This document shows positions 26,613 through 34,498 of a stretch of 55,336 nt of DNA, one piece after another. A model generated the notes under the pieces. The model saw only the letters and a list, made by a program, of their open reading frames with translations, had not been told where the DNA came from and did no database searches. The position numbers and the translations under genes are program-made. How positions within the stretch are numbered: position 1 is the stretch's first letter; each line of letters begins with the position of its first letter. The DNA comes from Patescibacteria group bacterium. Its GTDB lineage: Bacteria > Patescibacteriota > Saccharimonadia > Saccharimonadales > UBA4665. The stretch is from the NCBI GenBank assembly GCA_030271625.1, contig JARXKN010000004.1, positions 1-55,336 on the forward strand, written 5' to 3'.

Positions 26613-29860
<3,248 letters not shown>

Positions 29861-31832: not shown

Positions 31833-32322
31833 ATTTGGCCAGATGGAAGGTCGCTGGCTGCTGGATATTCTTGGTCGAGCGATAGGCCCGGCAGAAGCGC
31901 GAAGGGGTGACGCGCCAGGTAGTATGACAGTTAAAGCAGCGGTAGTGAACGAAATCGTTCTGTTGCAAACACTTAGTCCGGCAGGTGGGGCAGATGCTGC
32001 GTTTATACAGCCAGTCGCGGTAGGTATCGAGACAATCTTGAATATGATTTTCATCAATGGTGACACCAATGGTGGCGGCAACAGCTTTAGCCTTATCCCA
32101 GGCGGCAACTTCTAACCGCACTAACTGAAAGTCAGCCTGGTAGCTGCTGTGATCTAACAGGGCATGGCCGGTTTCGTGGAGTAGTGACCAGATAGCCGCG
32201 TCGCCCGTAGCACTGCGCTTATAACTAATTTCATGGTTCTCTGGTGACCAGCAGAATTGATGGGCCGGCTTAAAAGACAGCCCAGGGTAAGCGAGTTTAA
32301 GCTGCTTAAGCGTGCTTTCCAT
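31831..32322 (-). CDS. Putative zinc metallopeptidase (HExGH) with C-terminal zinc ribbon
   Basis: 163 residues. HETGH at residues 49-53 in the context LLHETGHALLDH is a gluzincin/ImmA-IrrE-like zinc site, and Glu71 in EVAAW is a good third ligand. A C-terminal zinc ribbon has Cys111, Cys114 (CPTC), Cys118, Cys129 and Cys132 (CFNCH). Domain order peptidase then zinc finger suggests a regulatory protease or a protein that recognises nucleic acid or protein; the substrate is unknown. Its start overlaps the 3' end of the ROK kinase gene by 17 nt, so the two are translationally coupled. Part of the ImmA/IrrE family cleaves repressors, which is not shown here. Confidence 0.8.
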   Translation of the reverse strand: MESTLKQLKLAYPGLSFKPAHQFCWSPENHEISYKRSATGDAAIWSLLHETGHALLDHSSYQADFQLVRLEVAAWDKAKAVAATIGVTIDENHIQDCLDTYRDWLYKRSICPTCRTKCLQQNDFVHYRCFNCHTTWRVTPSRFCRAYRSTKNIQQPATFHLAK

Positions 32323-33121
32323 AGACCTGTTTCGCTAAGTCGTAACAGCCGTAGACCACAGCTTCCTCGGGGCGCTGGGCTTGGGTTATTTTCGGTATGG
32401 CAATAACGGGTACGGCCCGTTTATCGAGCTCGGCCTGGAGTAAATGGCCCCAGCGATCAAAATAGGTGCCAATACTGCCACCAATAATAATCAGATCCGG
32501 TTGGTAGACGGCAATCAGCTCAAAAAAGCCGAGTGATAAGTTGCGGACAATGTGTTTCCAATCGGCTTCATCGTGAATATCGGCAGCTTTTTTACCAAAG
32601 TGATTATAGATAGCGCGGCCTGAGCCAAAGGTTTCCCACTTGGTTAACTGGCCTTTAAAGGGTAGCATTATATGGCCACCTTCGCTATCCAACATGCCGG
32701 GGTCAAGCTGCTGTTGGTAGACAAAACCAGTGCCAATACCGGTGCTAATGGTTACGTACAACACCTTAGCTTGATCGCGATGCAGTAAAGCTTCTGACAG
32801 TCCAGCAAGATTGGCGTCATTTTCAATTACCACCGGACAGCGCAAAATCTTCTCACAGTCGGCTTGGAGCGGGAAGTTGGTCCATCCTAGATTACCAAGC
32901 TCGACTACGCGACCATGCTTGCGATCAATCCGCCCCGGCGCGGCGACACCGCCGGCGACAAAGTCTTGGTGCTCCAGATGGTGAACGGTATGGGCTAGTT
33001 CCAGCAAAAAATTACTGTATTTTGCAGGGGTAGGGAACTTAATGGACTCCACAATTTTGCCATCATTAGTAAGGACCGCCACCAAGGTCTTAGTGCCTCC
33101 AATATCAATCCCCACGTACAT
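32306..33121 (-). CDS. ROK-family sugar kinase (glucokinase-like)
   Basis: 271 residues from the ATG at 33121. N-terminal phosphate loop GIDIGGTKT (residues 4-12), catalytic Asp102 in ENDANLAGL, glycine-rich STGIGTGFV, and EGGH (147-150) of ROK kinases. Expected reaction: ATP-dependent phosphorylation of glucose or an N-acetylated hexose, feeding sugar into metabolism. Oddity: the CxCGxxGCxE zinc motif normally following EGGH is absent (here IMLPFKG..WETFGSGRAI). Start choice: an upstream in-frame ATG at 33133 sits inside the -10 TATGAT (33129-33134), whereas ATG 33121 is 7 nt beyond it and gives the canonical MYVGIDIGG start. First gene of a leftward pair with the metallopeptidase. Glucokinase is more likely than a transcriptional ROK repressor because no HTH is present. 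Confidence 0.88.
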   Translation of the reverse strand: MYVGIDIGGTKTLVAVLTNDGKIVESIKFPTPAKYSNFLLELAHTVHHLEHQDFVAGGVAAPGRIDRKHGRVVELGNLGWTNFPLQADCEKILRCPVVIENDANLAGLSEALLHRDQAKVLYVTISTGIGTGFVYQQQLDPGMLDSEGGHIMLPFKGQLTKWETFGSGRAIYNHFGKKAADIHDEADWKHIVRNLSLGFFELIAVYQPDLIIIGGSIGTYFDRWGHLLQAELDKRAVPVIAIPKITQAQRPEEAVVYGCYDLAKQVYGKHA

Positions 33122-33128
33122 ACCAATA

Positions 33129-33134
33129 ATCATA
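33129..33134 (-). promoter_or_regulatory. -10 element of the ROK gene, leaderless layout
   Basis: TATGAT on the minus strand ends 7 nt before ATG 33121, so transcription would begin at or next to the start codon. The -35 is poor. Confidence 0.5.
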
Positions 33135-33180
33135 CACTGGCACTAGCTGCAGGGCCAGCAGTTTAAGAAAGACTTGTGAG

Positions 33181-33282
33181 GGGATTGGGTATTTGAATTC
33201 AAGGGGCTAATGCTTAGGGCAACCCGAGCGGCCAAAGGCCACCCGGCGAGAACCGGCCCCTTGAGTTTAAATACCCAATCCC
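33181..33282 (+). ncRNA. Candidate structured RNA: 26-bp helix closing three hairpins
   Basis: Arms 33181-33206 and 33257-33282 pair along all 26 positions: 24 Watson-Crick plus two G-U when read as plus-strand RNA. On the minus strand those two become A/C mismatches, which favours plus-strand transcription. The 50-nt interior folds into three hairpins: GCTTAGGGCAACCCGAGC (33212-33229, one bulged A), GGCC-AAA-GGCC (33230-33240) and CCGG-CGAGAA-CCGG (33243-33256). It sits upstream of the rpsA promoter, so it is not part of the rpsA leader. It does not match tmRNA, RNase P, SRP or 6S RNA motifs that I know. No clear promoter was found. A palindromic mobile element is the main alternative. Confidence 0.6.
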
Positions 33283-33296
33283 TTTAACAGGGCAGC

Positions 33297-33325
33297 TTGC
33301 CTATCAGAGGCCCATCAGATATACT
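33297..33325 (+). promoter_or_regulatory. Promoter of rpsA
   Basis: TTGCCT (33297-33302), 17-nt spacer, TATACT (33320-33325); leader of about 105 nt to ATG 33437. Confidence 0.75.
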
Positions 33326-33436
33326 AGTAAGCAATCTTGGAAACAATTTAATCGAGGGCGCTCAAGGGTCATCCTCTTCGTTAGCGCGCAGTATTAGTTG
33401 CCACAGGAAAATACACTACAAGGAGGCATGAGGAAC

Positions 33437-34498
33437 ATGTCAAAAGAACTTACTATGGATGAGCTGCTAGCCGGCTCAGAGATTACAGCGCTCGCTACTG
33501 GCGACGTTATTGAAGGGGTTATTACCTCGGTCCGAAAGAATGAAGTATGGGTTGACCTCGGTGCCCGCGGTGTCGGCGTAGTTATGCGCCGCGAGATTGG
33601 CCATGGCCAAGCTCTCGAAGACGGCGCTAGTATCACCGTTAGCGTCATCGACCCAGAAATGGAAGAAGGCCACGCGCTACTTTCCATGAAACGAGCCGTC
33701 AAAGATCGCGGTTGGGACGAAGTCCAACGCTTATTTGATGCTCAGGAAATCGTCGAAATTAGCCCATATGACGCCAACCGTGGTGGTTTATTGGTTGAGC
33801 TCGAAGGTATTCGCGGTTTCTTGCCAGTTTCACAACTTGCCGCCGGCCACTACCCACGGGTATCTGGTGCTGACAAGGATGAAATCTTGCAGAAGCTAAA
33901 CGCCCTTACTAGCGAAACCTTACGGGTCCGCATCCTCGATGTTAGCCGCAAGGACAACAAGCTGATTTTCTCTGAAAAAGAAGCTGTTAAAGACGACATG
34001 CAGGCTCGTTTCTCCGAACTCACCGTTGGTGATGAAGTTGAAGGCGTTGTGACTGGTGTTATCGACTTCGGTGCCTTTGTAAACGTTGATGGTATCGAAG
34101 GACTCATCCACATTTCCGAGATTTCTTGGGAACGCGTTGATAACCCTCGCAACTACGTTAAGGTTGGCGATAAGCTCAAGGCTAAAATCATTGCTATCGA
34201 TAAGGATCGTTTGAGCCTGAGCTTGAAGCAAATGAGTGAAGACCCTTGGTTGTCCGAAGTAAAATCCTTTAAAAAGGGCGACGTCGTTGAGGGTAAAGTA
34301 ACCCGCATCACACCTTTTGGCGCCTTCGTTCAACTCAGCGCTAGCGTTGAAGCTTTAGTCCACGTTTCAGAAATGAGCGATGACGAAACCGTTGATCCCG
34401 AACAATTGTTCCAGCTCAACGAAAAGAAGCAGTTTAAAGTGCTCGATATCGACACTGACAACCGCAAAATTGCCCTCAGCCTCAAAGACGCTAAGTAA
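33437..34498 (+). CDS. rpsA: Ribosomal protein S1-like, four S1 domains
   Basis: 353 residues with four OB-fold S1 domains at about 20-87, 102-171, 196-264 and 279-350; domains 3 and 4 carry the classic VGD..EG.VTG(V/I)..FGAFV pattern. In the ribosome S1 binds mRNA upstream of the start codon and helps unfold it. Four domains is the short form compared with six in E. coli. Start choice: AAGGAGG (33420-33426) is only 1 nt from the ATG at 33428, so ATG 33437 (MSKELTMDELL) is preferred; the upstream ATG at 33398 lies before the Shine-Dalgarno. infB follows after 47 nt in the same direction, a plausible translation operon. Confidence 0.9.
   Translation: MSKELTMDELLAGSEITALATGDVIEGVITSVRKNEVWVDLGARGVGVVMRREIGHGQALEDGASITVSVIDPEMEEGHALLSMKRAVKDRGWDEVQRLFDAQEIVEISPYDANRGGLLVELEGIRGFLPVSQLAAGHYPRVSGADKDEILQKLNALTSETLRVRILDVSRKDNKLIFSEKEAVKDDMQARFSELTVGDEVEGVVTGVIDFGAFVNVDGIEGLIHISEISWERVDNPRNYVKVGDKLKAKIIAIDKDRLSLSLKQMSEDPWLSEVKSFKKGDVVEGKVTRITPFGAFVQLSASVEALVHVSEMSDDETVDPEQLFQLNEKKQFKVLDIDTDNRKIALSLKDAK

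What the first reader, a model, noticed from the sequence alone, without database searches (positions are those of the whole stretch)
33181..33282. Strong unassigned RNA structure upstream of rpsA
A 26-bp uninterrupted helix closing a three-hairpin junction is unlikely by chance. Two G-U pairs on the plus strand would be A/C mismatches on the minus strand, so selection on a plus-strand RNA is indicated. It lies between the divergent ROK and rpsA promoters and matches no RNA class I recognise.
Basis: partly seen in the sequence, partly recalled or inferred. Interest (0 to 1): 0.68.

Follow-up and report, generated by a model that had tools for sequence, protein, structure and literature searches.

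The report
Mobile hairpin with a new stem
The structure is one copy of a repeated DNA hairpin scattered through the genomes of tiny parasitic bacteria (Saccharibacteria); copies share the same folded head, but nearly every copy sits on its own, perfectly self-matching stem, which no known kind of mobile hairpin explains.

Summary
In detail: window 33181-33282 folds into a 27-pair helix (2 G-U) around a branched core (z -10.1, 0 of 200 shuffles). It is not a regulatory RNA peculiar to rpsA. It is one copy of a dispersed Saccharibacteria hairpin family: 39-40 copies in CP025011 (G008), 6 in its congener G069, 3 in G002 (two between the same ROK and rpsA genes), 1-3 in about ten others. The ~50-nt core is conserved and covaries. 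The outer 20-25 bp of stem is perfectly paired but unrelated between copies, even when cores are identical. At three filled/empty gene pairs both arms arrived with the core; no target-site duplication was seen. So the stem comes neither from the parent copy nor from the target. Rfam finds no match; Y1 transposase and reverse transcriptase are absent from most carriers; REP, MITE and attC criteria fail. Best reading: a hairpin element mobilised in trans whose stem is built anew in each copy, probably by fold-back copying of a new arm. The dispersed family with per-copy stems is well supported (about 0.9); the stem-making step is inferred (about 0.4). One genome (G055) has two copies that share stem sequence.

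The parts
33181..33207 (+). left arm of the stem (GGGATTGGGTATTTGAATTCAAGGGGC); the outer ~22 nt are peculiar to this copy, the inner AGGGG belongs to the family core
   Evidence: unique in own genome
33208..33255 (+). conserved core (CTAATGCTTAGGGCAACCCGAGCGGCCAAAGGCCACCCGGCGAGAACCG with its flanking bases), a folded head homologous to dozens of copies in other Saccharibacteria
   Evidence: covariance models R1 and R2; covariation
33256..33282 (+). right arm of the stem (GCCCCTTGAGTTTAAATACCCAATCCC), complementary to the left arm with 2 G-U pairs
33297..33325 (+). predicted rpsA promoter TTGCCT-17-TATACT, seen at the same place in G002; outside and downstream of the element (context, not part of it)
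   Evidence: sequence comparison with L028
33434..34498 (+). rpsA-like S1 domain protein gene (context)
   Evidence: near full-length orthologues in most of 60 relatives
32306..33133 (-). ROK-family kinase gene, divergent neighbour (context)
   Evidence: the neighbourhood is conserved in many relatives

Best explanation
The feature is one copy of a non-coding hairpin element dispersed in Saccharibacteria. A unit is a conserved folded core of about 50-80 nt, ending in a short conserved stem (GAG...CTC in G008, AGGGG...CCCC in the window's genus, GAGAC...GTCTC in G069), on a 20-25 bp outer stem that is perfect but different in nearly every copy. SHOWN: dispersed copies with a covarying core; unrelated stems on identical cores; insertion of the whole unit, both arms included, at comparable gene pairs; no target-site duplication; no second match of the arms in G008. 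INFERRED: the folded single strand (DNA, or a DNA copy of RNA) is moved by a trans-acting factor not yet identified. During or after insertion one end receives 20-25 nt of new sequence (untemplated or captured short DNA), and the other end of the hairpin folds back and copies it, making a perfect new stem. In the window the copy lies between two divergent promoters and is probably a passenger.
For: Dispersal: R1 finds 39 copies in G008, 3 in G002, 2-3 in G003, G013, G021 and G055, and 1 in the window genome; R2 adds 6 in G069. New stem per copy: in G008 at least six core sequences each occur in two copies; the pairs printed have unrelated arms, arm identity over the outer 19 nt is 33%, as in shuffled columns, and does not follow core similarity (rho -0.07). 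Copies with an identical apical hairpin, which also only needs to pair, still have unrelated arms (31%, 39 pairs), and 639 of 646 outer-stem pairs are Watson-Crick. In G069 three copies with the same ~70-nt core have unrelated stems. Both arms inserted: G069 copy L293 is intact between ...TAG and GCGTATGGTACACT..., where G008 has TAG directly followed by GCGTATGCTACACT; L292 leaves 5 nt and L283 17 nt between convergent stop codons, against 3 and 8 nt in G008. The G008 copy at 1123448 leaves 59 nt without both arms, against 51 nt in G069, in a poorly alignable spacer. Gene 3' ends abut arm tips (18 within 27 nt; 3.8 expected) with 1 inside an arm. Direct repeats at the tips: none of 3 nt or more. 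Arms have no other 18-nt match in G008.
Against: No enzyme is linked to the element: Y1 transposase and RVT_1 are missing from most carriers. The source of the arm sequence is unknown; three arms were sought in IMG/VR without a match. Arms have positional preferences (AAGTA next to the core and C-rich in G008, G/T-rich in the window's genus), which purely random synthesis does not predict. In G055 two copies share the outer stem CTGACCCACACTCACTTTTT, so stems can be inherited there. Filled/empty pairs are species about 70% identical in DNA, not strains. The window genome has one copy only.
Confidence: 0.5

Rival explanations
1. Copies inherit their stem, but the stem is rewritten very fast afterwards: mutations in one arm are copied into the other by template switching in the hairpin, so the stem stays perfect while its sequence drifts and the core is held by selection.
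For: Template switching creates and repairs perfect hairpin stems (PMC8794818). Only 7 of 646 outer pairs are not Watson-Crick, as expected under correction.
Against: Copies with identical cores, including the apical hairpin that would drift too, have unrelated stems in two genomes. L105 and the plus-strand rpsA copy in G002 differ only around the apical hairpin of the core yet share no stem. This would need a rate far above neutral, confined to the outer stem.
Confidence: 0.2
2. Insertion makes an inverted duplication of the target: one arm is native DNA and the other its reverse-complement copy.
For: It explains unique perfect stems simply. Arms show a weak positional motif like a target preference. 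The right arm of L105 matches the G000 empty site slightly (p about 0.05).
Against: Empty sites in G008 hold neither arm. Gene ends lie outside, not inside, the arms. Second-family hairpins have unique stems between conserved outer flanks.
Confidence: 0.06
3. A structured RNA (small RNA or leader) acting on rpsA or the ROK gene, conserved for its RNA fold.
For: Strong covariation; very stable plus-strand fold.
Against: Copies sit beside unrelated genes in any orientation. The element lies upstream of the predicted rpsA promoter. Most relatives lack a match while keeping the gene pair. No significant G-U strand bias.
Confidence: 0.08
4. An ordinary REP or REPIN, or a MITE, moved by a Y1 (RAYT/IS200) transposase.
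For: Extragenic, dispersed, near gene 3' ends like REPs (PMC3733652). G008 cores contain GTAG and G008 has two Y1 genes.
Against: No GTAG or CGTC tag in the window copy. No Y1 match in G000, G002, G003, G013, G021, G015, G032 or G069. No shared terminal repeat, no target duplication. REP stems measure mostly 6-9 bp and are family-conserved (PMC3733652).
Confidence: 0.12

Closest known systems
REP / REPIN elements (GTAG- and CGTC-tagged extragenic palindromes, RAYT-associated)
   Same: Short dispersed extragenic hairpins, often just downstream of genes, imperfect stems with bulges, non-autonomous (PMC3733652)
   Different: REP stems are mostly 6-9 bp and conserved within a family; here the outer stem is 20-25 bp and unrelated between copies; no tag in the window copy; no RAYT in most carriers
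MITEs
   Same: Small palindromic non-coding units in many copies
   Different: No terminal inverted repeat shared by the copies and no target-site duplication
Mitochondrial repetitive hairpin or double-hairpin elements
   Same: Dispersed hairpins of unknown mobilisation, mostly intergenic (PMC10085805)
   Different: In sponge RHEs stems are conserved and loops vary (PMC2800124), the reverse of the pattern here
Integron attC sites
   Same: Single-strand hairpins with extrahelical bases and variable sequence on a conserved fold (own knowledge)
   Different: No RYYYAAC or GTTRRRY box in the window element; dispersed singly, not in cassette arrays

Membership tests
Rfam families (any) | score at or above the gathering threshold | tested here: not met
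   window; G008 loci
REP (GTAG/CGTC) | GTAG or CGTC tag at the hairpin foot | tested here: not met
   none in 33171-33292 on either strand; G008 cores do contain GTAG
REP (GTAG/CGTC) | RAYT/Y1 transposase in the genome | tested here: not met
   no PF01797 match in G000
MITE | terminal inverted repeats shared by the copies | tested here: not met
   outer arms at chance identity between copies in G008; exception: two copies in G055
MITE | target-site duplication | tested here: not met
   no direct repeat of 3 nt or more at the tips of 32 G008 copies
attC | R'' (RYYYAAC) and R' (GTTRRRY) boxes | tested here: not met
attC | integron integrase in the genome | not tested
Intrinsic terminator | G+C stem followed by a T run | tested here: not met
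   no terminator-like site at 32900-33600; only TTT after the right arm
Saccharibacteria hairpin family described here | match to a core covariance model | tested here: met
   R1 89.8 bits (a seed sequence); R2 71.3 bits, E 7.6e-14 in its own genome; the window copy is in the training set of both models, so the independent support is that a model seeded by it finds the same architecture elsewhere

The most novel reading that the evidence does not exclude
Each time the element copies itself it makes a new 20-25 bp stem: an arm of sequence taken from neither the parent copy nor the target is added, and the hairpin folds back to copy it, giving a class of mobile DNA with a conserved head and a newly synthesised stem in every copy.
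Probability: 0.4. Interest if true: 0.9.

Novelty: new variant of a known kind. Interest (0 to 1): 0.7.

Why it matters
Dispersed extragenic hairpins are a known kind, but their stems are normally family-conserved. Here copies with identical heads stand on unrelated perfect stems, and filled/empty sites show that both arms came in with the head. That points to a copying process that makes new perfect palindromes, or to extremely fast rewriting of palindromes; either would be new and testable. It also offers a marker of recent activity in host-dependent Saccharibacteria, whose mobile DNA is little described in the literature I could search.

Tried and rejected
blastn of the element in relatives gave only short matches near chance level. 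Caldilineaceae matches to the strict core pattern are chance hits in coding DNA. A split, gene-carrying autonomous version was sought in G008: none. IMG/VR, phage and plasmid collections hold no core match (the hits there are a glmS coding flank). I first took the L105/G000 comparison as proof that arms are new, then as support for inverted target duplication; the test was inconclusive and the G069/G008 pairs settled it better. The arms were not copied from elsewhere in G008. Host-gap lengths and palindromic extension into the flanks gave no signal for a native arm. A further comparison in genus g62 was too diverged.

Full report
OBSERVATION. The inverted repeat is as described: arms 33181-33207 and 33256-33282, 25 Watson-Crick and 2 G-U pairs on the plus strand, 48 nt between them. 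The fold of 33171-33292 is far more stable than shuffles (z -10.1; minus strand z -6.6), and no other perfect arm of 14 nt or more exists in the window. Rfam finds only 23S and 5S rRNA in the window and nothing credible at the element.

CONTEXT. The element lies between a ROK-family kinase gene (32306-33133, minus) and rpsA (from 33434, plus). The gene pair is adjacent in many relatives. A promoter-like site at 33297-33325 recurs in the nearest relative, G002, at the same place (L028). The element is upstream of that site, so rpsA transcripts from it would not contain the element.

HOMOLOGUES. blastn finds no second copy in the genome, but the same intergenic region of G002 holds two hairpins with the same kind of core and quite different stems. 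A covariance model from these three finds copies in 12 of 99 relatives, 39 of them in G008, which is CP025011.1, Candidatus Saccharibacteria bacterium YM_S32_TM7_50_20. A second model adds G069, of the same genus as G008, with six copies of a longer-core subfamily. The window's genome has one copy. G008 copies are intergenic, beside unrelated genes, in any orientation (two lie inside short ORFs with no support as genes), and gene 3' ends often abut the stem tips (18 within 27 nt, 3.8 expected).

THE CORE. In 52 aligned copies, 18 of 23 consensus pairs show changes on both sides that keep the pair, including pairs inside the core such as columns 27-83 (A-U, G-C, G-U) and 30-78. The alignment was fitted to a model with a related structure, which favours that structure somewhat. 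The fold is selected, in RNA or in single-stranded DNA.

THE STEM. The outer stem is nearly always perfect (639 of 646 pairs Watson-Crick in 34 G008 copies), yet unrelated between copies: mean identity 33%, equal to column-shuffled expectation, and not correlated with core similarity. At least six G008 core sequences each occur in two copies, with entirely different stems in the pairs printed. The apical hairpin serves as a control, since it too needs only to pair: it is shared among copies while the outer stem is not. In G069 three copies share the same ~70-nt core and have unrelated stems. Arms have no other 18-nt match in G008. Composition is skewed differently in different lineages: C-rich 5' arms in G008 and G069, G/T-rich in the window's genus and G013.

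WHERE THE ARMS COME FROM. If one arm were native target DNA, empty sites should hold it. In G069, copy L293 sits between a stop codon TAG and GCGTATGGTACACT; in G008 the same two genes are joined by TAG-GCGTATGCTACACT with neither arm. L292 leaves 5 nt between convergent stop codons where G008 has 3, and L283 leaves 17 where G008 has 8; keeping one arm would leave 25 and 38. The reverse comparison, G008 copy 1123448, gives 59 nt against 51 in G069 (86 with one arm), though that spacer aligns poorly. No direct repeat of 3 nt or more flanks 32 G008 copies. So the unit, both arms included, was inserted, and the stem is neither the parent's nor the target's. An earlier comparison in the window's own genus (G002 L105 against G000) shows core and stem absent from the empty site but could not exclude that the right arm is native (p about 0.05).

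MECHANISM. Shown: dispersal, covarying core, per-copy stems, insertion of the whole unit. Inferred: movement as a folded strand by an unidentified factor, and construction of the stem by adding new sequence at one end and fold-back copying at the other. Y1 transposases and RVT_1 reverse transcriptases are absent from most carriers, G000 included, so neither is a general explanation. Rewriting of inherited stems by template switching, a process known to create and repair perfect stems (PMC8794818), is the main rival; it would need a rate confined to the outer stem and far above that of the apical hairpin. A caution is G055, a more distant genome, where two copies share the outer stem CTGACCCACACTCACTTTTT.

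SECOND FAMILY. G008 also has hairpins with another core (GAGGACTGTTTGAGC...GCGAGTTCCGCAG) and unique perfect stems of about 18-26 bp nested between conserved outer flanks; two of its copies share one stem. There the variable segment is internal to a conserved unit, so stem renewal may not be peculiar to one family.

COMPARISON. REPs share location and size class, but their stems are mostly 6-9 bp and family-conserved, they carry a GTAG or CGTC tag, and GTAG REPs are linked to RAYTs (PMC3733652); the window copy has no tag and its genome no RAYT. MITEs need shared terminal repeats and usually target duplications; neither is seen. attC boxes are absent. Sponge mitochondrial hairpin elements conserve stems and vary loops (PMC2800124), the opposite pattern.

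VERDICT. The finding as titled, an unassigned RNA structure upstream of rpsA, is only partly right: it is a dispersed hairpin element. That it belongs to this family with per-copy stems I hold at about 0.9; the fold-back origin of the stem at about 0.4; the combined explanation at 0.5.

Noticed in passing
G008 (CP025011.1) near 1, 5383, 36939, 37103, 503615, 685066, 685403, 725083, 725393, 900851: A second dispersed hairpin family with core GAGGACTGTTTGAGC...GCGAGTTCCGCAG; unique perfect stems (two copies share one stem) between conserved outer flanks, T runs next to several, some in inverted pairs 200-400 bp apart.
   Followed up: partly
L096 and L104 (genome G055), around position 1455-1630 of each locus: Two copies of the element share the outer stem sequence CTGACCCACACTCACTTTTT, unlike copies elsewhere; stems appear inherited there.
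   Followed up: no
L295 (genome G069): Core same as in L292 and L289; next to the core the right arm starts TCGTT as in L292 while the left arm does not match it, then a new perfect stem follows: possibly a trace of the parent's arm at the junction.
   Followed up: no
window 26615-29860: The 23S rRNA match spans 3246 nt against a 2925-position model, suggesting about 320 nt of insertion; no 16S rRNA match and no tRNA gene were found in the window.
   Followed up: no
G003:C1:202936-203742: The ROK gene of this relative is reported with an in-frame TGA, perhaps a broken gene.
   Followed up: no
G008 inverted repeats at e.g. 176361, 242443, 366977, 999348: Long terminator-like hairpins with A-rich 5' arms and T-rich 3' arms, distinct from the element.
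   Followed up: no
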